Assembly (NCBI RefSeq): GCF_030463565.1
Contig: NC_134649.1
Coordinates: 3,793,501-3,857,500, forward strand
Reading direction: 5' to 3'
Length of the DNA: 64,000 nt
DNA from: Pelecanus crispus
Taxonomy: Eukaryota; Chordata; Aves; Pelecaniformes; Pelecanidae
The position numbers were made by a program, and so were the translations under genes. Below, in pieces: positions 22,281 to 56,845 of this stretch. How positions within the stretch are numbered: position 1 is the first letter of the stretch; each line of letters begins with the position of its first letter. Under the pieces are notes generated by a model. That model had not been told where the DNA came from. It made no database searches and saw nothing but the letters and a program-made list of their open reading frames with translations.

Positions 22281-22392
22281 GGCGGCGCTTCCGGCGCTGC
22301 GCGATGACGCAGTACGCACGCACGCACAGCCCGCCTCGGGGCGGGGCGAGGGAGGTCGCGCGGCCGCTCCTGGGGGCTGAGGGGGAGGCGGC

Positions 22393-22402
22393 GCCATCTT
22401 GG
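22393..22402 (-). promoter_or_regulatory. YY1-type site near the MTFMT transcription start
   Basis: On the minus strand the bases read CCAAGATGGC, the YY1 consensus typical of housekeeping promoters, where it sits within a few tens of bases downstream of the start site. The position, about 115 bases before the start codon, fits a transcription start near 22410-22430. Confidence 0.55.
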
Positions 22403-23796
22403 TCTGGGGCCGGTCCGGAGCAGCGCTTCGAGCTGCGCTTCAGGGCTGCGTGGAGCCCCACGGGAGCGCTTCCCGGGCCCCCCGGCGTCCCCCCGGGGGA
22501 AAGGCCAGCGGTGTCGGGGAGCGCAGCCAGGTCTCTGCCTCAGCCCCGGTCTCGGCTGCGCACCCCGAGCGCGGCCTCTAGGCCTGGCTTCTGTCTTCCC
22601 ACAGCGTCGGTGCTGCCCGAGCGAGCGTCTCCCGTGGCGGTGGACTCGTAACCCTGGCCCTCCTGACCGTGAATTGGCCTCTCTGCCTCAGGGCGAAGAT
22701 AACGCGTGAAAATGTCGGGGCAGAAAGGGGTGTTGACACCGCAGCCACTGATTTTCTGCTGGCTCTGATGCAGCGTTTGAAAAGCTAACTTCTGTGTCTT
22801 CCTCTGTGGACAGCTTTGTTTTAACAGTGATTAAAGAATGTTTTCTTGTAAACTGTGGGGTCACAATAAGCACTTAAAACAACTATCTTCTCCCATAAGA
22901 ATAAAAATATTTTATCATTCTGCTAAGAACATTCTTTTCCCCCATGGGGAGATGGTTTATTTGTGTAGCTTTTCATTTAATGTAAATTACATAGACAAGT
23001 TCCCTATGCATTTAAATCACAGTATATCCTACAGTCTTTGACACTAGGATTCTAAAGCATGGAATGTAAGAATCTGGAGACGTTTCCTATATGCCAGTGA
23101 AAATGTAAATTACTTGAAAACTGGGTGACAGAATTTGTCAGACTTATGTCAGACATGAGGGAAGGATCGCTAAGGAAAGTTAAATTTTGTACCACACTAA
23201 GTGGCGCTGTGCATATTCATTCCCTTTTTCACGTCTGTTGTGCCCATCATTAGGGCATTCTCTCAGACAAAGGAGAACTAATGAGAAAGTGCTGTTATAG
23301 GTAAAAAAAAAAACTAGTTAGGCCACCCTAACTGAGGTGCTTACATTCCTGCACCCTGAGAAAAGCAGGTTACGCTACCAAATACCGAGGTAATTTCCTA
23401 GCTGAGAACCAGTACATAAAAATCAATTGCTACAAAAAAAATTAATTCTTTATTACTTGGAGAGCCCCATGAAAATCCTGTTTAGTCAGAGGCAGGATGC
23501 TTTTCAATTCTAGCTGCCTCATCTCAGGGTGCATAGATGATACAGTAAAGAATAAAATAATAAACAAGCAAGGATGAAGGAATGCCTTCTGCTTGAAAAG
23601 AGATTAGAGCAACCAGCGTAGCTTATCTTGGAAAGCGGCCGTGGGGAGAAGGGCAGGCGAGCGGTCTGCCTTATCGTAGATAGTATGAAGCTGGTAAACA
23701 GGGAGCAATTAGTTGTCGCACAGTAACGAAGCGATTACGGGCACTTAACAGGTATCAGGCCCCGAAAGAGAGGAAGTGGTGTTCCACCCAGCGTGT

Positions 23797-23862
23797 AATT
23801 TGACCCCATAATATCTCAGACGCTGAAAAAATTTGACCACATAATATCTCAGATGCTGAAAA
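23797..23862 (+). repeat. 33-base tandem duplication
   Basis: Two adjacent 33-base copies (23797-23829 and 23830-23862), each containing cataatatctcaga or cataatatctcagat, differ at about two positions. The high identity suggests a recent duplication. Confidence 0.9.
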
Positions 23863-26800
23863 ATACTCATGGTTTCCAGTTGCTGGAAGGCGGGCTGGAA
23901 GGAGACGTCCTGTGTCGTGCCGGCAAATACCAGCTCTGGGCGAAACCCTGAATTTATCACCAGCGCTTCAGAAAGGCCAGGGATGTACCATGCGTGTCTG
24001 GGTGGCCCAAACGCTGCCCGAAAGCTGGGAATTTGAACCTGGCATCCGGCTGCTGCTCGGTGTTAATTTCCAGGTATCGGATCCCAGCACGGGAGGCACT
24101 GAACGTGTCGGCGGCACGGCGGCACTGTGTGCGGAGCTTCACCTGCCGCTCCTCAGGGCACTTAAACCCTGGAGACGGATTCCCAGCTCCAGCTGTAGTT
24201 AAGGCTCCTGGAAATACTGAAGCTCCGTGCTGAGTTTTTGCCAGACTTGCGCATGAAGTAATTAATGTTTCATTTGCAGTGAGTTTATGAAGTGGACTTA
24301 AATTCATTCCAGTGTACTTGCTCCCAAGTAATTCATCCTCAGCTCTGATACGACTGTACAGTTCAAACGGATTACAGCTATTATTACGCCTTGGAGACTG
24401 TACATGAATTTTAACTGAAGATTTATTTCGATGTAAATTTTTCCAGCAGAATGAAAGCAACAATCTGATTGTTTCATGAAAAAAGAAGAAAAAAAGCTCA
24501 CAAATCTTGCTTTCCTGCTGCATTCAAACTCTGCTTTTGTACATGGAAAAAAAAAAAACAACCCAACCCTGAATGTTTAGTTATTCTGTAACCAGGCATT
24601 TCAGGTCAAAGACACAGAAGGGATCAAAAAAGATAAGCAAAATTAAAACTCCAAGGTCAGGCAAGTTCTTCCTAAGAGTAGTGAAGACAAATCCAAGGAG
24701 GAAGCAGAACACAAATCAACATCCTATCTCCACTTTGCTTCCTAGCCAAAGACACTGAAAGTGTCTCCAAGTAGTAAGAAGATATCTCCCTTTAAAGAGC
24801 ACCAGTGTTGTCAAGGGAGATATGAAATAAAACACTCAGCCATTGCCGAAGAGATTGCTTCTGAGTGTCTCCGTGGTCCTCTGGGGAAGGAGAGGATTGC
24901 TGGGTGCAAGGGCCAACTCTAACCGGTGGGAAACTGGTTTTGTTTCCATGTACATCATGCTAAATCCTAAAGGCATCTCACCACCTACCTGCATCTTGAC
25001 ACTATTTTTGGGGGGCGTTGGGGGTGCGGGAGGAACTGCCTCGCTGGTGCCCTAGGGCTTGGCCCCGGCCCATGCCGCTCCACCCCGGGGAGGCGAGTGG
25101 AGGTAGCCCATCGCTTCCCCGCTGGCTGTGGGACGTTGGGCTCGCAAGGGCTGCAGTAGGGCTTTGAGGGTCTCCTGTACGGGAGGAGCTGTCGGACAGC
25201 TCTTCTGCAAACAGCCCAAAGGCAGGATGGGACCCGAACGGCCACTGCGGAGCTGCAGAGGTGCCCATGACTTCCCAGGGGCTGCAGGCACTCTGTCTCC
25301 TATGATCAGGTTTACCTGGTTTCAGAGGCTTCAGTTTATGGAAATGTGGGTTATACTGTCATGCCCAGCTTCCACACAGCAGTTGAGAAATTTTTTTTTT
25401 CATTAAAATACAGATACATAAATCAAGCCATGTAGGAAATTGGGATGAAGAGGGACCTCCTGGGGCTTTGCAGTCACCCTCCTCCTGTTACCATCACCTC
25501 TTCACCATGGCTAGCGTCTCCATCCCTCTACTCAGAGAATGCACTTCAGGGGCCAGGCGTTTTCTTTGCACCTTTCTCAAAGGCAGCGAGCCAGAGGATT
25601 TGGTTGTGTACCTTGTGAGACTGCTTGTTGGCCTGTCACTGCACCCCATCCCTGGCAATGGGAAGGTCACAAGGACACTGCAGGAAAGCGTTCCCTAGTG
25701 CGATAGAACTTTTAAAATGATCCAGCTAAAAACAAGGAGGAAAGATGGCACCATTGTGTGTGTGATGCCCTGGCTCAACCTGCCTCCCCCAGCAGAGAAG
25801 AGCTGTGGTTTCCCGGAGGATGCGTTTCTGAGCGAGAGCTCCCATCCGATCGCTGCCAGGCTGATGCTGAACAGTAAAACATCTCTGGGGAGTATGCATG
25901 TCTGCTGGGTGAGATTTCACAGGGGCAGCCAGAGGAAGCTGAGTCGGATGTGAGGTGGGATTCAAAGGATTAATCACACTGGAACACGGTTTCAATGCCA
26001 AAGACACTTTATTTCAAGCTGGAAAACATTGAGAACAGGACAAACATAAGGAGACTGTGCCCCTCTCCAATTAAACTTAGGCTAACCAGTGCTAATTGTG
26101 TGCTCCAAGCCTATCACTGAGGGGTATCCAGCTTGCTTTGCAGTATGCAGCTCCCTGCATGGATCAGACAGTTCAGGGAGAAGGAATCCTCCCTTCTGAA
26201 TGTGGCTGGCACAAAAAGGCAGCACATCAGCCTCGTGACGCTGCAAAGCCTCTTAGTAGCCTATTGACTTAGCCCGCTCTGTTGCCAGTGCCTGTGAAAC
26301 AGGGATGGCAAAATCGCTGATGGGTGCTTTGTGCTTTGCCTGCCAAGTCAGTCGCTCTTGTAAGATGCGCTGAGAGCCTTAGGATGACCATTCACTAAAA
26401 AAAAGAAAAAAAAAAAAAAGGGCTAATATGTGCTCTATCAGGACATGCTTCCTTTATGCAATGAGGACCGAGCCAGGCAGAGTGAACATTATCATTTATT
26501 TTAACCCCCGGGTAACTTATTACTGTCATTCTACTTGGCATGCTCTTTTAATACTGATTACGCCAATAGCTTGAGCAAATAAGCTGGAAGTTCCTGCGGT
26601 TCATTCTTTGGGAAAAGGTCGTTCACCCGGTGCTGTAAATGGACCCACCAAAGAGGTGTGTTTTTTTCAGGGGCTGGAGTGAACCTCACCTGTTGGGCTG
26701 GCCTTCGCACATGACTCAGGAGCAGAATGAATCACAGCTCGTAGCAGAGCGAGAGCAGGAGGAACGGGAACCTTGTCCCCATAGTAAGGCGCTGACGGGT

Positions 26801-28157
26801 GCTCGGAGGAGACGTCTTCAGATGGCAGGGCTTAAGGAAGAAATGTAGCTTCCTCTGTGCTGGCAACTGCGTGTTTCTGGTGAGTAAGCGGAGATTAACG
26901 GACATTCCTGGTGCACTAGCTGGTGGGTTAATTTATAGCTATCTGTAAAGAAAGGCTTATTTATTTATGTCAGTTAGAAAGCTCGGATCCTTGGAAATTT
27001 TAAGCAAAGGCTGTATGACTTGTTTAAAGAGAGACTGAATGGCAAGTGAGAATGGCAGGCTGGGATAACTCCTGCATATAAACAGCCTGGAAAGCAGTCA
27101 AAGGAAAATACTTAATATAACTCAGATTTGCTCTTTAACTTTTGACTTTACAAAGGTTAAAAAATAGTACAGACTGCCTTCTTGCTTTAGTATTTTAAAT
27201 ATTAAACATATCTCTTGTGTTCTTTAATTGAACTCAGTCCTTAATGTACCTTTATAAACCAACCCATCCATTTGTATCTCCGTGGTGTGCCATTGTACAT
27301 CCTGTATGAATCCCAAAGACAGGGCATCCCACTTTTATAATGTATTTGGAGTAACTGACACATTTTAGCACAATCAGTTAAGATAAGATAACCACCAGAG
27401 ACAGAGTCTGAATGACAAGAGGAGAATATTTTACAAAGGCTGGGACATCATAAGTGCATTGCCCCGTATTGTGTAGTGAGCGGAGTGTCCAGAGGGACAT
27501 TATCATCTTAACAGAAGCTGTACTTGATGGTCTTTCCAGAAGACTTTTTTTCCCCCCATCTTTACTTATATCAATATAGGAAGTATCTCAAGACTTCTCA
27601 TTTGCACAGTGAGGGCAACATCTGGCTTGGTAAGCAGCCTTGAGTGGTAGACCTGATAAAAACCAACATACAAAGCACATGGTGGTTTCGCAGCACCGCG
27701 TGCTCTGCCCTGGCTGGAAAGAGTCCACATGCAGCAGGGGACGTGCGTGTTCCTACACGGGACAGGCCCCTCGCCAGGTTGTGCCAACCTTTAGAGCATG
27801 GATCCCTCAGCTCCGCCTTTTGCGTGCAGTGGGTCTCATATCTCCAAAGGCTTCCATCATGAGGAAGGATTTTACCGTTTAAGTGCTGGGATCAATATGT
27901 AGAGCAAAAACCAGTCACTTGCCATTTTGCTGTACTTTCTTTAGATTTCATAGGGTGCCACCAAAGGCCACAGATCCTCATTACGAACAAGAGGATTTGG
28001 GACAGATTTGGCAAGTGACTCTCTGTTCCTGAAGTATGCACAGCATATAAATTTTGCAGCTGTTGATGTGAAAATCTCATTTGCAAAAAGGAAAGAATTA
28101 CAGAATTGTTCATATATAAAATGTAAATATAACGTAAATAAATATAAACTCAAAATA

Positions 28158-28214
28158 ACACAAGTAAAATGGGTTAACACAAGTAAAATGTGTTAACACG
28201 AGTAAAATGTGTAC
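28158..28214 (+). repeat. Threefold 19-base tandem repeat
   Basis: Three copies of acacaagtaaaatgtgtta-like units with one to three differences run head to tail, forming a small minisatellite in the MTFMT-SLC51B interval. Confidence 0.9.
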
Positions 28215-30669
28215 ACCTTGAGAGGTGCTGGCCTCTTTGTTCTTTCTACCTCCTTCCATACAAGATTAAAATGCATGAGCTTTCTCTCGTTTGAGTTCCC
28301 TGTGTTGTACCCAAGCTGGGAAGCAACCTTGGGAGAGGCTCCTCAGGCTAGGAGACCAAAGTCCACAGCTTAGAGTTGTCAAAGGCCTGGATTTAAGGGC
28401 TCATCCCCATCCAACAGCAGCCAGAGTGCCTGCTGAAACGTGTGGGCAGGGGAGCAGTAGTGAAGACATCACCCACCCTCTCTCAGCTTGTTTGGTGGAG
28501 CAGTGCTCACCCACGCCCGGATGTGGGCGGCGGGGCAGAGCAGCTGTGTGGGGGAAGCTGGAGGAGATGACTTTAAAAATCTCTCTTTCAGGCTGGGAGA
28601 TCCAAACTCTCCAGCGCATGTCCAGCTCAACTGTGGGACTCACTGTTTCCTCACTGGGGAAACTGGTGGTGCCGGCAGTGTTCTGGATCCTGCTCAGGCT
28701 CTCCACTGGGGTAGATACGCTGGCCTGAGCACACCTTGTTTTGTAGCTTTGGTGAATGAAACTTCCAAACTAATTTGATCAGTTTGACATAGACGTAAAA
28801 ATTCTTTAATGGGGGTTTCCCTTAAAGCCCTTTACCTAAATTTCCTGTTAACGCATGATAAATACCCATTCTACTACTGTATTGTACCTGAGACGTTCTG
28901 GCCTCCCACATCTGGGGGAGATTTGGCGGTCACTACTTTATGAAGTAGTGAAGTACTTCTCGCAGCTTTCTAGCATCCCTGCTGTGCATGGCAGCTTTAG
29001 TGTGGACGCCAGGAGGTGGCCCACAAGTTATGAAACACCTTAGGAGAAAATCAGCAACATGCACGTCAAATATTCCCATTCAGGCAAATGATTAGACAGA
29101 AGCCTTGCACAGCAAGATTTAACGCATTCAAGTGGCACTTCTCATTAGGGCGTAGCAGACTTGTAACTTAATTTCATTGGCACCAGGACTTTATTTCCTC
29201 CTTTCTGAGGAGTGATTCGTGTGAATAAGCTAAAACTTACCTGGACGGTAAGGTAATTGGCATACCTAACTGCAGGGAGCAGCTTTACCCCTATTTTCTG
29301 AAATACAGAGTCAAAGTTGACGGTGTATTTCAGAGTTCCATCCTCAAAGAATTACTAACAGGTGGTTTTCTGGCAGCAGAGAGCAAGCCTGCATGCCTAG
29401 TTGGCTATAAAACGTGAACTTTGAATTGTGAAGACATTGAGAAGGGGGTGAAAATAGTAGCCATCATTAGGTCTATAACCAGTAGGACAAATGTTACCCT
29501 GAGGAGTCAGCAGCGGTGTTGTTGACACGCCTGGCATGGTGGAACATGCTCGTAAGTGATTTCCAGGGAACAGTTGCAGACAGTGCCAGGCCACACTTCA
29601 AAGGTGAGTGAAAGTTGAGTGTATCAGACAGTTGTAAAAGTCTAAGTCTTCATATAATAATTCACGGCCAGTGGGGCCAGCATGTCTGAGGGACGCACGG
29701 GTGTTGTGGTGTCATTCACCTGTGAGTGGGTGACGGTTCAGGTGAGGCCAGCGAGTGGTGGCAGAGCAGTGGGCTGGGGAGAGCCGCCGTCTCCAACTAA
29801 CTCACGGTGGATGGACGGGAACCCTCTGCTCAGGTCAGGTCCCTCCAAAGGAGGCTGAAGAAGTGGGTTGGACAAGCAGCCATAAAAGCTGGATTGATGC
29901 CACTGACAGATGAGGGACTGAAGGTCAAGGAGACGCTTTCTGCTTCCCTGAGGGATAGGAGATACCTTTGCCTTAATGGCAAGCTGGCTTTTCCTCCTTT
30001 TGGAGCTGAGCCCTCCACTTCCTCATCTTCACACCCTTATTCTGCCATCCATGGATTGGCAGCAGGTGGTCACTACCCACAGAGTATGTATTCTCTAAGG
30101 ATTGTGGCAGGGGAGCAAGGAGGGAAGCAGCGAGGTTAGTTGGGGAGGGGCTGGCTCTCAGCATCTGAGCTTGCATCTGCACGGGGTCACCTAGGCAAGG
30201 GCTCCAACCCCAGGCAGCGCACCCTGTGCCAGAACCACTCTGCTGTCACCTCAGTGGCTCCCAGGATGGCTGCACCCTGTCCTGGCAGCTCAGACTCACA
30301 TTCACAGAAGAAAACAGATGCCACAGCCTCAGGGGTACATCAGGTCCCCTCTCTGAATACAGAGCTGGAGCAGGGACAGAATCAGCATGAGCTGTTTAAA
30401 AGATCATCACTACTACTTGTGCTTTTGTCTCCTTTCATCTGCTGTAGATACCAGAGGAGAAACATGCTGGCCTGCTGTATCCAGTCCCTCTGAGTAATAA
30501 CTTGTATAATTCAGGGCTCCCACCGATAACACCAGTGGCACCGCGCAGTGGGAGCTAGCAGAGGATGCTGCGAGGTTCTCTCTCACCTCTCGTCTCTCTC
30601 TTTCCCAGGCATCTGCGCGCTGAAGAAACACCGGTGAAGGCGTGATCCATCCCAGCTGCGCATACAAAT

Positions 30670-33600
30670 ATGAAGTTCTTCTGGATAATCCCATTTTTCC
30701 TGCTGCAAGGTAGAGTCTTGGCATAGAGGATAATAATGTGGGTGAAGTAGGTCACACGTGCTGAGGCTGTGTCTCTTCACAGGCTCTCACCCACACCAAG
30801 CTCAGCAGGGATTACAAGAAGACATTGTCTGCAGGGCAGGTTCGCGGGAGCTGGATGTACGCGTGCAAGAGTTTCCAGTATTGTTGTATGGCCTTATGAA
30901 CGCCTCACTGGCTGAGGGCAAACACATACAGATAGTATTATGGAAAAGGCGTGCATTAAAGACTTTAACTTCCTGGAAATATGGTTTCTTCCTCTCCGTG
31001 GGCCCATTTTCCTCAGTATACCCCAGCAGCAGCCTGGCTCAACCATGGAGAAGGTTGCACCCTAAGCCTGTGCTCACAGCACTGTTGCAATCTCTTCCAC
31101 ACCTAGGAAGGCACCTGACCTATGGAGATTTGATTTTTTTAAAACCCAATATCAATGTCTGTTGGCACTATCTGCACCCCCACTGTGCAGAGGGATGTTC
31201 CAACTGACACTTTAAGGTTAGACAGCAGAACTGGAAAGACCTGACCCCCAAACCCTTCCCCTCTCTGGTTCCCCAGAAACAGAGACATTGGAGGCAGTTC
31301 CTCATTCATCCAGCTGGAGCAGGACATCAGGCCGTCTGTCCCCAGAGGCAAAGGAGGAGCCAGCAATGAGGCTCACCAAAAGGTCTGAGCCTCCTCCACC
31401 TCTTGGAAAAAAAACAAGAGAGCAGCCTCCCACCTCCCAGAATCAGCAGGAAGGGGCTAAGCGTGGCCTGGGCTGAGCACGGGCCAGGCTGCGCGGTGCT
31501 GTGGGCTGCCACCAGCCAGCACACCAAGGGGCCCAGCAGAGCTCAAGTCTAGGAGAGGAGCTTACCAGCATCTCTTCTCTGGGGAACAGCTACAGACAGA
31601 GCTTCAAACAGAGCTCAGCACAAGTCGCAAGGGCAAACCTAGCTGGGCCCACCCAAAAGGACGTGTTTGAGCCATGTTTGCTGAGAAGTGTGGGGTAGGG
31701 AAAGCTCAGCTACGAGCCCAGCAGCCCTGGCAGAGAGAAGCTGGGCTGGAGGCAGTTTGCCTCTTGGATGCCTTTTGCCCTGCGCTGAGTTCCCAGTGCC
31801 AGAACTGGGTGTCATTCCCATCTGCCCTGTATGCTCTGTATATTCTGCGCTTAGGGGATGGCCACACTCATATGCTGGTTTCTTTGCAGACGCTGAAGCT
31901 TTTCTGATGAAAAATGCTGAAGTCAAGCTGTGTTTACAAGCCAGCCCGACGAATGGGGATTTACTGCTGGAGGACTGTAATCCAGAGTCAGATTTCCAGG
32001 ACTGGTCTTGGCAAGGCGATTCTTTGATGAATCGCGGCACGCAGAGCTGCCTCTCCGTGGTCGGGGCCAACAGAGTGCAGACAAGTCTGTGCGGCAGTGC
32101 GGGCTACACGAGCTGGGACTGCTCCAATTCTCTGCTCTCTCCTCTGGGCAGCAGCCAGGGCTACCTGGTGGCAAGCAGGAAAGGAGTCACTCTGAAAAAC
32201 AGGAGAGGCTTGAAGGCCCAATGGCAAGCTGTCGCAGACAGGAGCGTGTGCGAGGAGAAAGCAGGTAAGTGCCGCACACCCGGGGAGCAGTGGTACACGC
32301 ACACACGCTGCTGGGGAATGCGGAAAGGCACAGTCAGAGTCCTGATGTCTTTCCAACCCTGGGTGCCCCACCACAATGGGATCTGCAGTGCGAGCCAGAA
32401 ATGCTCTCCACTTCTCGGTGTATGAGATAAGGCTGTGCCCTCACGGCTGCGTCCTGCCTGCTTGGAGGGACATGCTGGGCAACACGGGGAGCCAAGGGGA
32501 AGGCCATTTCTGGCCCCAAGTATTGCAGTGAGCAACCATTGCATCTTTCTGGTCTTTTTCTCCACAGCCGAGGCAGAGCAAGACAGGTACTTCCTTGCAG
32601 CCCTTGCCAGCACACAGGTGTACAACCACACAGCAGGCAACGCGACCCTTGCACTGGGTATAGATCAAGAACAGCTGGAGGAGCTGCTCTGGTTCTTCCG
32701 CAGAGAAGACCGTAAGTCCCATTGACATTCCTGGGTTGAGAGTTGAAATGGAGATCCGCAGTCCTTGGCTGTTAACCCTCCTGCCTAATGGAGATGCCCA
32801 AGGGAATTACCCGAGGAGGTGATTTACGCCAGATATATAAACCCTTAGTCTCACCTCCAGAAGAAGCAGGCCATGGGTGAAGGCAGGCACGAGGCTTTGC
32901 TGAGACAGTGTCTCCTCCCAGAGTGGGGTTCAGCGTCTTTCCAGGCATAGCCTGCCAGGAGAGCAAAGGTCTGGGATGACCAGCGATTTTGGCAGGGTGG
33001 AGGGAGCAGATCGATATGAGCAGGTCAGCGCCCCGAGGATCAACTTCAAAACCACAAAAATCAAGGACGGAGCATCCGCTGCCATCTGTGCTGCACACCC
33101 CAGCCGGTGTTCGAAGGCGAAATCTATCTGCCTGAGCGTGGCAGCATCGAGAAAGCCTGCAGAGCGGAGGGGCCCTTCTAGCAGTGCTCACGGTGGGGTG
33201 CTGCAGCGCTCAGCCTTGGTCCCACCCTCGGGCACAGCCGCCCACAGCTCTCAGGCAAGGTTGGAAAGCCACGCCAGGCAGATGTGGGCAGCGTGAGAGA
33301 TACAGAGCCCGAGGCGGGGGGCTGTGGGTGGCAGAAAGCAGTTGTGTAAGTCTCCTGCCCAGCGAGGGAGAGTTGCCTGAGGTTATCCCCAAAAACGTGA
33401 CCTGGGTGCTCTGCTCTGGATGCTGAGCTGGACACCAGCACCTCTGCCCTCATCCTGCAGCCAAGACATGGTACTCTGAGCTCAGGTATCCTCAGGAAAC
33501 GCTTGCCCGGGCTCCGTGGGCCGCACTGCTCTGCGCATGCTAACACTGCCTCTCCATGCTTTCCCACAGCGTCGGCGTGGAATTACTCCATCCTTGTGCT

Positions 33601-34689
33601 TTCCTTCGTGGCTATGATTTTGGGTCTTTTCCTCCTGGCCGTTAACATTGTGCGAAACAGGTGAGTCAGAAAAAGTTAGGGGTCTTTCGGTGTGTGGTGA
33701 GACCCCCCCCAGGCAGACAGACATATTTGTTTGGCAGGGCAGGGCAGGAACATCGCTCCTCCCTGGGTGACAGGGAGAAGAGCAAAGACAAACTCCCTTT
33801 GAACTGTGCTTCACTGTAAAACCTTGCCTGACTCCCTGCTCTCCTCCTGCGTCCCTTGGAACGAGCCACTTCACTGCTCCAGGCCCTGGAGCCTCACCGG
33901 TGAAGTGTTTGCAGCAGCTCTGCCCGGCCCAACAGAGCTGTTGGGAGGGAAGCGACATTAAATGCGTGCTGTGAGGTGCTGTCCCGTAAGTACAGGGGCA
34001 CGGAGGGGCTCTGGAGCAGCACTCCGCAGCCGTTCCCCATCTGCGTTCCCACAATGTTCCCCTGGGCCACGCTGCTGCACAGCAACCCTGCGGCTGAGGA
34101 GCAACTCGCTGTCTTCTACAGCAAGAAAACTTACATCGGGGTCAGAGCTTTCATCCTAAAATGAGAGAAAAAGAGCTAACGTTACGAGTCTGCCATGCTC
34201 TCATTTTAACGATGGCTTGCTGGGTGTTACTGCCTCGTTTTGGGCGACGCGGTGTGCTGTGCGTTCTCCAAGCGTAAACCCCGTGGCTGTGCGTACTCAA
34301 ACACTTCAGACCACTTCCATGAGACAGTGCAGCTGGCGGGGTTTGCCCGTAAGCAGCTCATGTGTTCCCAGGGCCAAGGCATGAAGAGATGGACGTAACC
34401 ATCACCGGGGGTGGATGCCTGTCCCCAGACGTGCGCTGAGCTTGCTGCTTCACTCCGCGTTTCCTTTTTATGCCTTCCCTGCAGGAAAAGGAAGATGCAC
34501 ATGCAGAGAGAAGCGGCTCGAACCACCAAGCAGGCTGAGCTGGAAGCCAGTCAAGCCCTGTTGGCTGTGAAGGAATACAGCCTGGCTGGACCACAAAAGC
34601 AGGAGCCAGTGCCCCAGGATCAGGGATCAGGAGAAGTGGTGGTCCAGTGGAAGGACGGGACCGTCACGTCTCTGTACGCAGGGATCTGA
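30670..34689 (+). CDS. SLC51B: Organic solute transporter beta with N-terminal mannose-receptor-like cysteine-rich domain
   Basis: OST-beta pairs with OST-alpha to export bile acids and steroid conjugates across basolateral membranes. Exons read 30670-30709, 31890-32264, 32568-32711, 33570-33660 and 34485-34689, all with good splice sites and closing phases, for 284 residues (human 128). Residues 1-13 (MKFFWIIPFFLLQ) look like a short signal peptide. Residues 14-138, one phase 1-1 exon, hold six cysteines (28, 43, 67, 81, 91, 134) in the mannose-receptor CysR pattern, with QSCLSVV, SWDC and a late QW. Residues 139-187 contain two N-glycosylation sequons and the OST-beta motif EELLWFFRREDP. 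WNYS and a membrane span (194-214) follow, then a basic RNRKRK cytosolic start and a 67-residue tail. The OST-beta exon has no methionine of its own, which supports the fused reading. An acceptor-like site at 30609 suggests an upstream leader exon. The identity as SLC51B is solid; the fused N-terminus is inferred from splice signals. Confidence 0.85.
30783..30839 (+). other. Possible 57-base cassette exon of SLC51B
   Basis: A good acceptor (gtctcttcacag) is followed by 57 bases that stay open in the frame set by exon 1 and end at a weak donor (GGCAG before GTTCGC). Being phase 1-1 and a multiple of three, it could be included or skipped without changing frame, adding 19 residues after the signal peptide. 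The donor is poor, so this is only a candidate. Confidence 0.25.
32834..32841 (+). promoter_or_regulatory. TATA-like box in an SLC51B intron
   Basis: TATATAAA lies in the intron between the sequon/WFFR exon and the membrane exon. It could drive a shorter transcript, but no start codon that would yield OST-beta follows in a convincing exon. Confidence 0.2.
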
Positions 34690-35131
34690 GGATGCCGTGT
34701 GACAGCAGCTGAAGTCAAACCATTTAGGCCCTAAGGAATGTGTCAGAATGTCTCAGTGCATAGTGATGGAAGTCTAAAAATGCAGTTTAGCCTGGGGAAA
34801 CAAAACAAAAAAAAAGAGTAAAAAAAGAAAGTGGCAGAGCTGCACCAGCAGAAGTGGCTCCAGGCTCGAGGCAAACCCGTGCCTCCCCCGTTTCAGGTCC
34901 CGGCTGGCTGCTCTGCACCCGCTGCGCTCGGCTGCCTCCAGCCTTCTCTCCCACGCCAGCTTCGCCCTCTCCCTCAGATGCCGCCTGCCTGTGCCGCAAA
35001 CGGGCGGGAGCCGAGCCGGGGTGGGAAGCAGGAGGCTTTTCCTGCGGTCAGCCGGGGAACGCGCCGTCACGTCCCGTCAGGAAAACAGCCACACTGAAGC
35101 AGAGGCGCTTCTGTTCTTTTCAGAAATCGTC

Positions 35132-35140
35132 TTTATTAAA
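35132..35140. terminator. Overlapping polyadenylation signals of SLC51B and RASL12
   Basis: The nine bases tttattaaa read AATAAA on the minus strand (35137-35132) and ATTAAA on the plus strand (35135-35140). They lie about 445 bases after the SLC51B stop and 1.0 kb after the RASL12 stop, the expected place for both 3' ends. The two convergent genes may share this site. Confidence 0.5.
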
Positions 35141-36149
35141 ATACTTCCCAAAGTGGTTGATCGAAATCCTGTATCGAATCTCTGTCGGTAAAGTCATATA
35201 CATATATATATGTACAAATATACACGTGGATATTTTACTCCGCAGAGTAACTGCAACTCCAGGGAGCAGCAGAACATTTAACCTGATACAGCAAATGAAG
35301 CCGAATGCGCAGCCCTTGGCCCTGCCTTGGGTGCAGGCAGAGCCTGGTCTGCTTTAGGATTCACTTCACGCCCTTCACTGGGCACGTGTAGAACTCATGA
35401 AATAATTTAAGACATTTTTGGAAATACATCAGTCTTTTAAACAAAGGCTTTTCAGAGTGTGTCCTTGTCAGTGAAGCATCTCTCCTTGCAAAGCCTTTGG
35501 AACAGTAGAGTGTAAAAAGTTGGTTAAAAACCCAGCTATTTTGGTGTGACTTATTTCAATGCATGGGAATCAGTTTCAGGACACCTGAGGCCTTTAGTCG
35601 GCTGAAACAGCATCTGCACCTTTCTCGTTCGGATTAAAAAAAAAAAAATTCCTCCTACTTATTGCTCGGTCAGGGGACCCATGAGACGAACGAGATGGGT
35701 GCCTCCACGCTTGATTAATGATTCATTCCCCCTTCCTGGGCTCCCATCGCTGTGCGCCAGGCGCCCAAGCAGGCTGGGGAGCCCTGGGGACGGCCCTCGC
35801 CCTCCCGGTGGTGCCCGCGGCTCCGGCTGCTCCAGGAACTGCCCAGATCCGCACGGAAAGCCAGGCTGGACCCGGTGCCAGCACAGGGTGCAAACACCAC
35901 GGCAGCGCTCGGCCAGGGGGGACGGGAGCTGGGGCGGGGGCAGGCAGAGTGATGCCACGGCCAATTTCAGACTCTCGGCACCCCGTCTGCTCACCCAAAT
36001 GTCACCGCAGGCTTTGCCTCGGCGCAGATACCGGGGCCACCGTCTGCCAGCGGCTGCTGCGGTGCCCATGAGTCCACTGCGGATGGTCTCAGCCCTCACA
36101 GAGCCGGGGGGACAGGGGTCTCTCACCACCTCCTCCGCAGGGACGCGTC

Positions 36150-39074
36150 CTAAAATATCTTGAAACCTTTCAGCAAGGTGAGCGTGGGAGCTTTCCTCTT
36201 GCTCTGAGCCCGCGAGGACTTGACAGTGACCAGCTTGGCCTGGGCCACCGAGGGGATCTCCTTGTAGTTGACGGTGGAGAGGGTGTTGAAGGTGCAGCTG
36301 GCCAAGCCGTGGTGGGTGGGCAGGGCAAGCGGCGTGGCCACCGGCGGGCAGGGACGCTCCTCGGTGATGAAGAGCGGCCGGACGGGTGGGCTCCGCTCCG
36401 CCTGGCGCCGCACCTCCCGCACAGCTTCGTGGAAGACGTGCTGCACCCCCGCGAAGTCCTGGCACGCCGACACCTCGTAGAAGAGGCACCTGAACCTGCT
36501 CGCCAGGGACATCCCTTCGGCTGCGGGCACCTGCCTGGCGGGAGCGGAGGGGATGGGTGCGGCATCCCTTGGGGTGCTGCAACCACCCGAAAAGGGGAGC
36601 AAGGGGTGCGGGTGGGGACCCTGCATCCCACGCCTGCTTCCCGGTGAGCACCGGGGCCGTACCCGCTCGTCCCAGCTCCTGGCACAAGCAGGGGACATGA
36701 GTCCAAAAGAGTTTTCCTTTTCCTGACATCCCAGAGTGATGGGCTGCGCGGGTCCCTGCAACCTCCCGTGCCAGGGATGCGTGCCAGCGACACGGGGTCG
36801 GACGCACTGGCAGCGCACGGGGAAGCGGGGAGGAGACGGGGCAGGTCCGTGCTTTGGGGAGGGGGAAGCCTCTGTGCTGGGAGCACCGGGGCGGGGGTTC
36901 AGCAACATGCGTGACTCAAGGACCCGTGGGACCAACACTCAGCACGGCCCCAGAGCGGCACAAAAGGCCAGAAAAACACACCGGGGACATCCAGTCCTGG
37001 CAGCGGGGACGGGGTGAGAAAGGGCTCCAGGGAAAGGGCACATCCAGAGGGGAGCGAGGAGCTGGATGGTGACGCTGCCTTACCACGCAGCCGAAAAACA
37101 TCCCGCCAAAAATACCAACGGGCTCGAAATAAACACATCATCCCCCCCCCCAGGCAGGAGAGCAGGAGCCTCGGAGATGTGGGAGGATGTGGCAAATACT
37201 GACAGGGGTGGAAATAACCACAAAAAAAAAAAAAAATCAGATTTGGGTCTTGCATGCCAGCCAGAGGGATGGGGGGATGATCTGTGAGCTCTCCCCCACA
37301 CCGGGAAAAGACAGCCTCGCCCCGCGCCCGATACCTGTACTGCTCCATGTCCAGCTTGTTGCCCAGCAGGAGCACGGGGCAGCGGCGCTGGCAGCCCCTC
37401 GCGTGCAGGGCGAGGACCTCCAGGTAACGCTGGCAGCCCTCGAAGCTCTTCCTGTTGTCGATGCTGTAGACGACGAGGAAGGCGCTGGCCCAGCGCAGGT
37501 AGCGCTCGCAGTTCCCGGGGCCATCCTGGGGGCGAGAGGAGCGGCTGAGCCGCGGTCCAGCCCGGTCACGCCGGGCGTTTGGCACCAGCTGTGCTGGGGC
37601 GCCTCACCTGATCGGCAGTGTCCATCACCTTCAGCAGCACGGGCTGCTGGTCCACCAGCTCCTCCGAGGTGTAGGTGTCCTCTGCAAGGAGAAGGGTGGT
37701 TGTGAGGACGGGCTGGGGTGTCCCGTCTTCTCCAAAGCCAAGCGAAGCCCTGGATGCTTGGAGCACCATGGGAAAAGCTCATCCCTGGGCAAGGAGCACC
37801 CTCCACCAATGCCTCCCACCTCGCTCCTTCCTGAGACAACATTACTTTGGGGGACCGGCGGCGATGCCGCTGGGCAAGCCCAGCTGGGAGCAGTTCTTTC
37901 CCCCTGCATGCCGCAAGCGTGGGCTCCCACGGGAGAAGGAAGGAGGGGAAGGAGCCCGGCGCGGCCATCACCGCACCCGGGCCTCAGCCCTTGTCTAAAT
38001 GTCATGACCTGGCGAGATAAAGTGAGCTGGAGGCTCGACACCGGGGCTGTTTCCCAATAAATCAGGCAAAAGGAGCACCCCTTTCTTTTGGAAGGAGGGC
38101 AGGCAGGGAGAGCCACTCAACCGGTCCCCTGGGAGGAAGATGCCTCCCCCCAGCCGGGTCCTAACGGATGCGTTTCGGAAAGGTTTTGACGTGGGAAGAT
38201 GAAACCGCATTCCCAAAAAAGATCCGAGGAGGAAAGGATTTATCCTTCTTTCCTAAGGGTTGCTGAGTTATTAGGGCTGGAGTCAGTTCCTGGACAAGGT
38301 CCATATCTCCCTAATGTCCCCGATAAATCATTTACGGTTCTTCCCTGCGCCCTGGAGTCAGGCCTAGGAAAATAGTTATTAATTGCTCAAACGAGTGGAA
38401 AAAAAAAAAAAAATGCCCAGAACCGCTCGCTGCAAAGCGCAGCCCCAGGGCCGCCCGCTCTGCAGCCCCCGCTCGCTCCCCCAGCCCTTCCCCTGCCCGA
38501 CACCCCAGGAGCGAGCAGGAGGCACGAGATGCTCCCCAAGGACCCCCAATAATTCGGCTTTCAGTATCTTTGGGGTGATGCGAGGAGCCGACATTTCCCC
38601 GTGAGACATGCCTGCGGAGAGAGCGCTGCTTTCACCTCTGTTTTTACAGGCGGGTTTGGGTCAAATCCAGCCCTTCCGTTGGTTTTTATGTAATTTTGGG
38701 TGTTGGGGTTTTTTTTTCCCATTAAATGCCGTATTTGTAGGGAATGCGGGGGACAGGAAGGATGCTCCATGGGAACTCATCGGGGGGAAACACCCGCGGA
38801 GAAAGCGTCTTACCCAAGTTGGGATCATATTCGCTTATGAACCTCTTGGTTAGAAACTTCACGGTCAGGGCTGCAGGAGATGAAAGAGGTGGGTGAGGCG
38901 GGCGTCCCCCCACGGCACCCCCCCAATGCCCAGCCATCCCCGTGGCATCGGGGCACCCGTCTCACCTGACTTGCCGGCCCCTCGGCACCCCAGGATGGCC
39001 ACGTTGCACTCGGCGAGGGGGCTCTGGGGCGGCCGCTCGCCGCCGGCTCGGGGTTTGCCGAACATCGAGGACAT
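36150..39074 (-). CDS. RASL12: Ras-like protein family member 12, five exons
   Basis: RASL12 (RIS) is an atypical small GTPase without a C-terminal prenylation box, linked to smooth-muscle and TGF-beta biology. Exons in transcript order are 39074-38966, 38870-38814, 37681-37608, 37525-37335 and 36534-36150. They total 816 bases, 271 residues plus stop (human 266). Visible motifs are the P-loop GCRGAGKS (Arg at the Ras Gly12 position), SEYDPNL, the switch II start DTADQ, NKLD and EVSA. The tail SSRAQSKRKAPTLTLLKGF is nearly identical to human. The start MSSMFGKPRAG aligns with human MSSVFGKPRAG. The 3'UTR runs about 1 kb, toward SLC51B. Confidence 0.96.
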
Positions 39075-40230
39075 CCTCGGTCCTGGGGGAGAGAGCGGGG
39101 GGGACATGGGGCACCCGCTGCCATGCCGGATGGGGCCCTTCTCGCCGCCTGGCTCGGGGGTGCCCCAGCCTGGGGGAAAGGGGGGCTCAGCGGCACCAGG
39201 GAGGGGGATCTGCTCTCCTCCATCCGCATCCTGCAGCCAGGGCAGCCGGCATCTCCATCCCACGCTGGCAGCCAGCACCCCGTCCATGCAAAGACAGTGT
39301 TTCCCCCCCTCAGCCCTCTGCCCGCCCTTCGCACCCCAGGAATAGCAGAGAAACGCAGGCTCCCACCTTAAAACCCGCCGCCGGAGGAGACGCGGGGCTC
39401 GCTGGGGTGCGCGGGGGCCGAGGCCGGGGGAGCAGCGGCCCCTGCGCCGCTGGGGCTGCCGATGAATGAGGCAGGCGGAGGCGAGCACGGCTCCCGCTGC
39501 TCGGGCCCCAGCCAAACTCCTTGTAAGGAAAGCTGCCGCGCCGGCGCCGGGCTGGACACGCTGTCCTGGCCGCCCCGAGGACGGTCACCCCGGCAGGACA
39601 CACGCCATCCCCCCGAGCTCCCGGGGCTTCGAGCAGGGAGCTCTGGCCCCGAAACCCGTCGTGCTTGCGCTCGGTGGCCACTTCGCCGTGCCCCCAGCAC
39701 CTCGCCGAGCCCTCGGCAAGCAAAAAGCCTGGTCCCGCTCCGCTGGCTGAGGCCGGTGCACTCATTACACCTCCCGCAGGCAGCAGCAGCACCCGGGAGC
39801 GATGCTGCCAGCACCACCACCCTCCTGTCCACCGCTTGCCCAGCCCATTTAAGCACAGACACCTTCTGCTGCCGGCAGAGACTTTGCAGGGGTAAAAAAA
39901 AAAAACAAAACACAACCTTTTTCCACCCAAAAGACACAGTCCTGAGGAGGGAAAGGGGAGCATGGGGAGTACTCACCGCCGCTGCCCGCTCCGAGCCATC
40001 AGCCAGCACCCCACGGGCTCGGAGCCCGAGTAGGTGGCGTAGGCTGAAGTCAGCGTTGTCATGGCGATCGCAGCCATTTGGGATGGGGCTCAGCGCCCGG
40101 GACCGCAGGATCCGGCCCCTGGGCTGCTCCCAAGGGGTTTCTGGGGGTGACCATACCCGGAGCCGGGGGGCAAAGGCTGCTCCGCGGCCATGTGGGGCTG
40201 CTGCACCGTTGGGATAATTGCCCGTTAATG
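38960..40230 (-). promoter_or_regulatory. RASL12: CpG-rich 5' region of RASL12
   Basis: Dense G+C and CpG extend from RASL12 exon 1 to about 40.2 kb, the expected promoter side of this minus-strand gene. I could not fix the transcription start or show a separate leader exon. Confidence 0.55.
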
Positions 40231-41503
40231 CAGGGAGGATATTTTTAAACCCTCCCAAAATAGCCTGGGAGTGTGGAAGTGTCTGCAAGCCCCAGGGATG
40301 GGGAGGATGAGGAGGATGGAGAGGATGGGGATCGCTCCCCTGTGGGAAGCAGAGCCCCTCTGGGGAGCCCCCACCCCCAGGCCCCCTTTGGACACAGGTC
40401 AAGGATGCTTGAAAGCAATCAGAGCTAAATGTGGTATTTTAAGCCGGGTACCTGTAAGGCTCAATGACAGTGACACAAGCGCAAAGCTGTCACCTTCTCC
40501 CCTAAACTGAGATTTTTTTGGGGGGACCTGCTGGGGCCACAATCCTGGGGCAATGGCTTTGCTGTCACGCCATGTCCCGGGAGCTCCCGGCTGCTGGGAT
40601 GAGGGGCTAAGGAGGGAGGAAAAAATATGCCTTTGGCAAGGTGGATTAAATTATGCATCAACAATAAAGACCAGTTGCAGGTGGCGATGGGGGGAATTGG
40701 GGGCCCCGCTGCCGGCCCTCCTCGGCACCCCACGGCAGAGGTGAAATGGGATTTCTAGCCAGAAAAAGCTGTGAGTAGCACACAAACGAGCAACATGCCA
40801 CGGATAACACTTTGCTTCACCATCAACCTCTACATGAGTCGAGGGGGGAAGGTTTCCTTGCCCGTGGCCGGGCGTTACAGGGGAGCGGGGCGAGCCCTGC
40901 AGCCGGACAGGACTTTTCCAGAGAGAAGTGGTTTGCTGCATGTCATTTTTCTTGTCACGGGATCCCCAGGTGAAGCACAGGCTGGTTTATGGCTCCTTGA
41001 GCCAGGGATGGCTGATGCCCAGGTTGCTCCATGCCTCCTACCTGGGGAGGGTCGCAAAGGGAACGGCCCCGGAGAGGTCTCTCCCTGCCCGTGACCACGC
41101 TCGAGGGGTGGCAAAGCCGCTTTCCCATGGCTGGGCTGGACGGCACGGAGATCTCCTGACGTCGGTTACCTCCCTCCAGCCATAAAACCCACTTTTATAA
41201 GGGGAAAAAAAAAAAAAATAGCGTAGCAACATGCTCTTCCAAGCCACATAAACATGTTGCCCTCCCCGGGGTGCGGACCATCTCTTTAGGGCATCACAAG
41301 GAGGATGCCTGAGAGCAGGGAGAGCGAAACCCATCTCCCGCGGGGCAGCCGAGCATCCTCCGTGGGACGAGCCGTGATAGAGCCAGGCATCTCTGCCGTG
41401 AACCGCGCCGGGCGGTGACGCCGGAGCCCTTTCTGTGTTTTGGGTGGGCAGCTGAGCTCGGCGGATGCCTTTGAAAGGCCCCGGTCACGAGCTTGGCTAT
41501 CTT

Positions 41504-41525
41504 TAGCCGAAGGTATTTATATTAC
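41504..41525 (+). promoter_or_regulatory. MEF2/TATA-like AT-rich motif upstream of KBTBD13
   Basis: CTATCTTTAG and, a few bases on, GTATTTATAT stand out in GC-rich surroundings about 130-150 bases before the start codon. Both resemble MEF2 sites, and the second could also act as a TATA box. This would suit a muscle gene but is only a motif match. Confidence 0.3.
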
Positions 41526-41655
41526 AGGGCAGCGGCGTGGCGGCCGCCGGGCAGTGCAGCAAAGGCATCAAAGGGTGGCGGAGGCAGGAGGGGGCTGCGC
41601 CGGGGCACGGCACGGAGGAGCACTGGGTGCTGCTCTGCTGAGCCCCTGGGTGAGG

Positions 41656-43038
41656 ATGACCCCGGAGGAGGAAGGCTCCCGGGCAGAGCCGCCGGAGCGG
41701 GTGCGTATCCGGGTGGAGGAGCAGTCGTTCTGGGTGGAGAAGGCCTTGCTGGTGGAGAGCAGCGAGTACTTCCGTGCCCTCTTCCGCTCGGGCATGAAGG
41801 AGAGCACGCAGGAGGAGATCGGGCTGGGGGAGCTGAGCGCGGCTGGGTTCTTCGCCATGCTGCGGGTGCTGGCGGGTGAGAGGCCCATCCTCAGCGGCGA
41901 GGAGACCTTCCAGGCGGTCGAGTGTGCCGCCTTCCTGCAGGTGAAGCCCTTGGCCAAGTACCTGATCCACTCCATCAACTCCGACAACTGCATCCTGCTG
42001 TACCAAGCCGCCGCCATATTCGGTCTCCTGGACCTCTTCCACTGCGCCGCGCTCTACATCAGGGACAGCTACGCCGAGCTGGAGGAGTACCTGGACTGCC
42101 TCTCCGATGACCTGCTGGCCTACGTGGAGACCCTCCTGCCCAGCACCTTCGTGGCAGTAGGAGCCCACACGCCCACCTTCGAGTTCCTGGAGGACCTCTC
42201 CAGGACCATCTGCTACCTGGACGAGGAAACCAACACGTGGAGGACCCTCTCCTGCCTGCCGCTGAGCGCCAGCACGTTCCTAGCTGGCATGGCGACCATG
42301 GATAATAAGATCTACATAGTGGGTGGTGTCTACGGGGCCAGCAAGCAGGTGGTGGAGAGCAGCTTCTGCTATGATGCCAATGCCAACGCCTGGAGTGAGT
42401 TCCCCAGCCCTCATCAGCTGCGCTACGACGTCAGGCTGGTGGGCCATGAGGGCTACCTCTATGCCATCGGTGGGGAGTACGAGAAGATCTCCCTGAAGTC
42501 CGTGGAGAGGTACGACGTGGCCTCCAATACCTGGACGTTCGTCTCCGACCTGCCACAGCCGAGCGCGGCAGCACCCTGCGCCCAAGCCATGGGGCAGATC
42601 TTCGTTTGCTTGTGGAAGCCACTGGACACCACCGTCATCTATGAGTACGAGACCCAGCAAGACACATGGCTTCCCGTCACCGAGCTCAAGCGGCACCAGA
42701 GCTATGGGCACTGCATGGTGGCCCACCGCGACAACCTCTACGTCATGCGCAATGGCCCCTCGGATGACTTCTTGCGTTGTGTCATTGACTGCTTCAACCT
42801 GACGTCGCGGCAGTGGACTGCCCTGCCCGGGCAGTTCATGAACAGCAAAGGAGCCCTCTTCACTGCCGTCATCAGGGGTGACACCGTCTACACTGTCAAC
42901 AAGATGCTGACGCTCCTCTACTCCGTGGAAGAGGAGACCTGGAGGTTCAAGAAGGAGTGGGCGGGCTTCCCACGCAGTGGCTCCCTGCAGACCTTCCTCC
43001 TGCGGCTGCCGAAGCGTGACCACGACATTGCGACATAG
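41656..43038 (+). CDS. KBTBD13: Kelch repeat and BTB domain-containing protein 13, single exon
   Basis: KBTBD13 is a muscle BTB-Kelch protein that acts as a substrate adaptor for the CUL3 ubiquitin ligase. Mutations in the human gene cause nemaline myopathy type 6. The intronless frame encodes 460 residues (human 458, also intronless). Residues about 14-120 form the BTB domain ([24 protein letters not shown]), followed by a BACK-like segment and Kelch blades with [20 protein letters not shown] and SVERYD. Near the end, [15 protein letters not shown] and [16 protein letters not shown] match human almost exactly. I chose the ATG at 41656: the frame stays open about 70 codons upstream, but that part is unrelated to the family and contains a probable TATA element. 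The coding region is GC-rich. Confidence 0.96.

Positions 43039-47007: not shown

Positions 47008-56845
<9,838 letters not shown>

What the first reader, a model, noticed from the sequence alone, without database searches (positions are those of the whole stretch)
30670..34689. OST-beta fused to a mannose-receptor-type cysteine-rich domain
The exon at 31890-32264 is 375 bases, flanked by phase 1 introns, and encodes a whole domain with six cysteines spaced as in the CysR domain of MRC1/PLA2R1. It joins in frame to a signal-peptide-like exon and to the OST-beta exons. The predicted protein is a 284-residue type I membrane protein with an extracellular lectin-like head, against 128 residues and no such domain in human OST-beta. 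In the mannose receptor this domain is also encoded by one exon and binds sulfated sugars, and OST-alpha/beta carries sulfated steroids and bile acids. A role in capturing ligands, anchoring to matrix or stabilising the transporter is possible but speculative.
Basis: partly seen in the sequence, partly recalled or inferred. Interest (0 to 1): 0.87.

Follow-up and report, generated by a model that had tools for sequence, protein, structure and literature searches.

The report
Bile-acid transporter subunit with lectin-like head
In this vertebrate genome the small beta subunit of the bile-acid exporter OST appears to carry an extra outside domain of the kind found at the tip of the mannose receptor, which human OST-beta lacks; the DNA supports this well, but no RNA has been seen and what the domain does is unknown.

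Summary
Exon 31890-32264 (375 nt, phase 1 on both sides) encodes a whole mannose-receptor-type CysR domain: its best Protein Data Bank match by sequence is the mannose receptor CysR (E 1.5e-6), and a CysR profile built without it picks this exon alone among 1989 six-frame pieces of the window (E 4.9e-9; next 1.5). All six cysteines are kept. Its donor ranks 1 of 2821 and its acceptor 50 of 4878 by a rough matrix. The following exons are true OST-beta (PF15048, E 1.7e-23). Exon 3 has no in-frame ATG before the membrane helix, so an upstream coding exon is needed. The 284-residue model is the most economical, but skipping the CysR exon also stays in frame (159 residues), and no RNA or vertebrate relative could be examined. 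The sulfated-sugar idea is weakened: in no alignment made here does the domain keep Trp117 or Asn102 of MRC1's sugar site. I read it as an exon-shuffled disulfide-bonded head on OST-beta, more likely for assembly or protein/matrix contact than for sulfated-GalNAc capture. New variant of a known kind.

The parts
30670..30709 (+). First coding exon: MKFFWIIPFFLLQ, signal-peptide-like, ends in phase 1; in-frame stop upstream at 30643
   Evidence: most hydrophobic of 13 ATG-plus-phase-1-donor candidates in 20000-31870
31890..32264 (+). CysR (mannose-receptor-type cysteine-rich, ricin-like) domain exon, symmetric phase 1-1
32568..32711 (+). OST-beta extracellular stalk exon with two N-glycosylation sequons (NHT, NAT) and the QLEELLWFFRRED helix; no in-frame ATG
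33570..33660 (+). OST-beta transmembrane exon (AWNYSILVLSFVAMILGLFLLAVNIVRNR)
34485..34689 (+). OST-beta cytoplasmic exon (RKRKM...) with stop codon
32265..32567 (+). Intron 2, 303 nt (a multiple of three); the frame shared by exons 2 and 3 is stopped once in it, at 32423; no AATAAA or ATTAAA in it

Best explanation
The locus is the SLC51B (OST-beta) gene, in which a symmetric phase 1-1 exon encoding one CysR domain lies between a signal-peptide exon and the three OST-beta exons. The main product is read as a 284-residue type I membrane protein: cleavable signal, about 120-residue disulfide-bonded CysR head, glycosylated stalk, the OST-beta helix and single membrane span, cytoplasmic tail. The head would face the interstitium or blood on the basolateral side. 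Most likely it is a folded extracellular module that helps the beta subunit enter the secretory path, fold and pair with OST-alpha, or that contacts another protein or anionic matrix; it is unlikely to bind sulfated GalNAc the way MRC1 does. Shown: the open coding sequence, domain identity by sequence, splice signals and phases, OST-beta identity, absence of two sugar-site residues in the alignments. Inferred: splicing into the mRNA, disulfides, fold, topology, location, function. Gene model about 0.85, kind of role about 0.4; the score given is for the whole.
For: CysR identity: phmmer E 1.5e-6 to 1fwu/1dqg and 6.8e-4 to the yolk sac IgY receptor. For scale, the MRC1 CysR as query finds MRC2 at 33.5-33.7 bits, PLA2R1 at 26.0 and LY75 at 21.2-23.1, while the window's domain as query scores 31.6 with MRC1. 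Profile test 4.9e-9, only significant hit of 1989 pieces; hhalign 95.5%; shuffles and reversed copy. OST-beta: PF15048 83.5 bits against cut-off 27; human OST-beta E 1.5e-12. Gene model: phases, splice ranks, no ATG for OST-beta without an upstream exon, most hydrophobic start exon of 13 candidates, no AATAAA or ATTAAA between exons 2 and 3. Neighbours CILP-like, Ras-family, BTB-kelch. Codon-position GC of exon 2 (GC3 0.65, GC12 0.50) is like exon 3 (0.64, 0.52). Sugar site: with PMC4635314 (Trp117) and PMC7948739 (Asn102).
Against: No RNA evidence. Exon 2 can be skipped in frame, giving a 159-residue OST-beta that still has a signal-like start. The exon 1 donor is mediocre (rank 201 of 2821). 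No relative of the exon was found, but only virus and prokaryote collections could be scanned. No usable structure model. Pfam Ricin_B_lectin is under its cut-off. Human OST-beta, 128 residues, works without any such head. Nothing here tests the assembly or contact role.
Confidence: 0.62

Rival explanations
1. The CysR exon is an alternative cassette: two OST-beta forms are made, 284 residues with the head and 159 residues without it, in different tissues or states. This does not exclude the main reading.
For: The exon is 375 nt and phase 1-1, so both forms stay in frame, and both exon 2 and exon 3 bring an AEA stretch just after the hydrophobic core of exon 1.
Against: The splice sites of exon 2 are strong (donor rank 1 of 2821, acceptor rank 50 of 4878), which argues for steady inclusion. 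No RNA data either way.
Confidence: 0.25
2. The head captures sulfated ligands (sulfated glycans, sulfated bile acids or steroids) and so aids transport.
For: It is a CysR domain, and its last third, as I divided it, is basic (net +6 over 37 residues). SLC51B is tied to estrone sulfate uptake (title of PMC10156747 in the search listing).
Against: In no alignment made here are Trp117 or Asn102 of MRC1 kept. Endo180, with Ser for Trp117, does not bind sulfated carbohydrate (PMC4635314); DEC-205, without Asn102, is thought unable to (PMC7948739). The whole domain is not basic (net -1). Limits: the alignment around Asn102 is uncertain, and a neighbouring Trp (in AQW) is placed at MRC1 Trp120 by spacing in most alignments but could be shifted.
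Confidence: 0.1
3. The CysR exon belongs to another transcript (for instance a small secreted CysR protein) that only shares the region with SLC51B.
For: Retention of intron 2 would stop at 32423 and give a soluble CysR protein. No RNA data exclude it.
Against: No AATAAA or ATTAAA between exons 2 and 3; strong donor at 32264; matching phase to exon 3; exon 3 needs an upstream coding exon. No FN2 or C-type lectin domain in the 20 ORF pieces scanned with Pfam, out of 143 pieces of 100 residues or more in the window.
Confidence: 0.07
4. The exon is a relic that is no longer used.
For: Only the genomic sequence is seen.
Against: Open frame, six cysteines kept, best-ranked plus-strand donor in the window, coding-like third-position composition.
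Confidence: 0.03

Closest known systems
Human OST-beta (SLC51B; PDB 9ljg chain B)
   Same: Extracellular LWFFR.ED helix, membrane span and basic stretch after it align at E 1.5e-12; the gene falls in Pfam OSTbeta. Ras-family and BTB-kelch neighbours are read as RASL12 and KBTBD13, which lie beside SLC51B in human by recall.
   Different: The human chain has 128 residues with only 14 before the aligned stretch, so no room for a CysR domain. L20 of the human L20L21 motif aligns with Gln here; an LL pair starts four residues later.
CysR domain of the mannose receptor MRC1 (PDB 1dqg, 1fwu)
   Same: Whole-domain alignment, six cysteines, domain at the mature N-terminus.
   Different: 22-28% identity; Trp117 and Asn102 of the sulfated-sugar site are not kept; no FN2 or C-type lectin domains follow, OST-beta does.
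CysR domains of PLA2R1, the yolk sac IgY receptor, LY75 and MRC2
   Same: Same domain family by sequence. MRC2 and LY75 are reported to lack one or more MRC1 sugar-site residues.
   Different: They sit on large endocytic receptors with many lectin domains; 20-29% identity to the window's domain. PLA2R1 keeps N and W at the two columns in my alignment, so it does not share the loss there.

Membership tests
OST-beta (SLC51B) | Match to Pfam OSTbeta above the curated cut-off | tested here: met
   PF15048 83.5 bits, cut-off 27
OST-beta (SLC51B) | Single membrane span with basic residues just inside | tested here: met
   Best 19-residue hydropathy window starts at residue 193, followed by RNRKRKM
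OST-beta (SLC51B) | Extracellular dileucine L20L21 reported as conserved in 8 species (PMC4924846) | tested here: not met
   Aligned residues are Q-L. Not a defining feature for all: a passage of PMC5942847 says skate OST-beta lacks the LL motif
OST-beta (SLC51B) | Pairs with OST-alpha and supports transport | not testable with these tools
   needs a cell assay
Mannose-receptor CysR domain | Whole-domain sequence similarity to CysR domains | tested here: met
   under the cut-off of the broader Pfam Ricin_B_lectin model
Mannose-receptor CysR domain | Six cysteines that form three disulfides in known structures | tested here: met
   Five align with all six profile rows, the sixth with the last Cys of PLA2R1, the IgY receptor and LY75 (the MRC1 and MRC2 rows were cut short of it). 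The bonds themselves were not tested
Mannose-receptor CysR domain | Beta-trefoil fold | tested here: inconclusive
   Single-sequence AlphaFold2, pLDDT 34
Mannose-receptor CysR domain | Sulfated-sugar site (Trp117, Asn102 of MRC1) | tested here: not met
   Trp117 to Lys or Ala, Asn102 to Ser, Arg, Lys or Val, depending on the alignment; the site is not shared by all family members, so it does not define the family
Mannose receptor family (whole receptor) | FN2 domain and 8-10 C-type lectin domains after CysR | tested here: not met
   The next exons are OST-beta; no FN2 or lectin domain in the 20 of 143 ORF pieces scanned

The most novel reading that the evidence does not exclude
A bile-acid exporter in this lineage carries its own extracellular receptor-type domain. 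An exon of the mannose-receptor kind was shuffled in front of OST-beta, so the transporter can hold a ligand or matrix partner on the blood side, which would be a regulated or anchored form of OST that mammals lack.
Probability: 0.25. Interest if true: 0.8.

Novelty: new variant of a known kind. Interest (0 to 1): 0.58.

Why it matters
OST-beta is thought of as a minimal partner whose short outside end pairs with OST-alpha (PMC4924846, passages). If a lineage keeps a full CysR head there, then the outside face of this transporter has a role that human and mouse work cannot show. It would also be a clean case of exon shuffling between an endocytic receptor family and a solute carrier. The listings of ten full-text searches, each capped at 10 to 25 papers, showed no paper that describes it; the library holds open-licence papers only, and automatic database models, which I could not consult, may already contain it.

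Tried and rejected
AlphaFold2 on the exon alone gave pLDDT 34, so no fold search was made. Scans of viral contigs with the exon and with a CysR alignment, and of bacterial and archaeal genome contigs, found pattern matches (8, 14 and 40 stretches) but no relative; these collections are of viruses and prokaryotes, so this says nothing about conservation. NCBIfam gave one match far under its cut-off and PHROGs none. A tandem or repeated CysR exon was rejected: the profile finds one copy, and neither of the two direct-repeat families of 30 nt or more at 25000-40000 involves the exon. A first join of the exons began one base late and was wrong; it was redone. A recent copy of an MRC-family exon was rejected: 20-29% identity to each CysR compared.

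The matrix used to rank splice sites was written from textbook frequencies recalled from memory, so the ranks are a guide only. The species labels mouse and human on MRC1 rows and the link of the IgY receptor to PLA2R1 are recalled.

Full report
Observation. The five exons of the finding are where it puts them. The four introns are GT-AG. The joined frame gives 284 residues. Exon 2 is 375 nt and has phase 1 on both sides. An in-frame stop at 30643 precedes the ATG at 30670. Hydropathy gives one signal-like core at residues 3-12 and one membrane span from about residue 193.

Domain identity. A sequence search of the Protein Data Bank with the exon's 124 residues gave as best hits the mannose receptor CysR domain (E 1.5e-6, residues 2-114) and then the yolk sac IgY receptor (E 6.8e-4); other beta-trefoil lectins followed at weaker values. 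I built a CysR profile from six sequences copied from the alignments (MRC1 of two species, part of MRC2, PLA2R1, IgY receptor, LY75), without the window's exon. Among 1989 six-frame pieces of at least 20 residues it found this exon (E 4.9e-9); the next best were E 1.5. The exon's protein scored 35.7 bits; the best of 2000 shuffles scored 12.9 and the reversed copy 1.3. Profile comparison gave 95.5%. The general Pfam model Ricin_B_lectin matched under its cut-off of 29 bits (26.5; 24.9; 24.4). The domain is 20-29% identical to each CysR compared, about as far from MRC1 as the MRC2 part is (26-28%), so it is not a recent copy of one of them. The fold was not tested: the single-sequence model was of no use.

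OST-beta identity. The last three exons match Pfam OSTbeta at E 1.7e-23 and human OST-beta at E 1.5e-12 over the outside helix, membrane span and basic stretch. Of the neighbours that I scanned, a CILP-like ORF lies at 6250-8634 (+), a Ras-family piece at 36902-37603 (-), and a BTB-kelch ORF at 41419-43035 (+), read as CILP, RASL12 and KBTBD13. That these lie near SLC51B in human is recalled.

Does the exon belong to the gene? For: phases fit on both sides; the donor at 32264 ranks 1 of 2821 GT sites of the plus strand and the acceptor at 31890 ranks 50 of 4878, like the acceptors of the OST-beta exons, which rank 43, 78 and 23; no AATAAA or ATTAAA lies in intron 2. Exon 3 holds no Met and no ATG lies in its frame back to the stop at 32423, so OST-beta here needs an upstream coding exon. 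Exon 1 is the most hydrophobic of 13 ATG-plus-phase-1-donor candidates in 20000-31870. Against: the exon 1 donor ranks only 201 of 2821, though the donor of the true OST-beta exon at 32711 ranks 174, and a transcript that skips exon 2 is also in frame, 159 residues. Both versions bring an AEA stretch just after the hydrophobic core. RNA would decide; none was at hand.

Function. MRC1 binds sulfated GalNAc with the sugar ring on Trp117 (PMC4635314, passages) and with Asn102 coordinating the ligand (PMC7948739, passages). Placing these numbers on the MRC1 sequence is my own counting; an N and a W lie 15 residues apart there, as the numbers require. In the window's domain Trp117 falls on Lys in four alignments (and two pairwise ones) and on Ala in the multiple alignment (columns read). 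Asn102 falls on Ser (and one pairwise), Lys, Val or Arg, next to gaps. So neither residue is kept in any alignment, but the second site is uncertain in detail. Endo180 has Ser for Trp117 and does not bind sulfated carbohydrate; DEC-205 lacks Asn102. PLA2R1 keeps N and W at both columns in my alignment, so loss is not general in the family. The sulfated-sugar role is thus weakened, not excluded. With thirds divided by me, the first part of the domain is acidic (net -7 over 43 residues) and the last basic (net +6 over 37), net -1 in all; a basic face could touch anionic matrix, which is speculation. In human OST-beta the outside end is needed for pairing with OST-alpha, through L20L21 (PMC4924846, passages); here L20 aligns with Gln. 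A head placed before this helix, with a signal peptide and two sequons between head and helix, could help entry, folding or pairing. I hold this kind of role at about 0.4 on its own; the gene model itself at about 0.85. No call tests the role.

Known or not. The listings of ten full-text searches showed nothing on a CysR or ricin-like domain in OST-beta (capped listings, except for the papers named here, of which I read passages). PMC4229073 (passages) describes five MRC1-like genes in chicken, four of them with CysR exons, with conserved splice phases; it shows that such exons exist in bird genomes, and what I saw of it does not mention SLC51B. PMC5942847 (passages) cites 24% similarity of skate and chicken OST, so a chicken sequence was known, but its length was not given in what I saw.

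Noticed in passing
32265-32567: Intron 2 is 303 nt and keeps the frame of exons 2 and 3 but for one stop at 32423, so retention would give a secreted CysR protein without membrane anchor.
   Followed up: partly
32672-32689: The human L20L21 motif reported as needed for pairing with OST-alpha reads Q-L here, with an LL pair starting four residues later.
   Followed up: partly
6250-8634: Long plus-strand ORF piece with four CILP domains (cartilage intermediate layer protein).
   Followed up: partly
41419-43035: Plus-strand ORF with BTB and kelch repeats, probably KBTBD13.
   Followed up: no
53832-55067: 412-residue open frame on the plus strand without a Pfam match at E 0.001.
   Followed up: no
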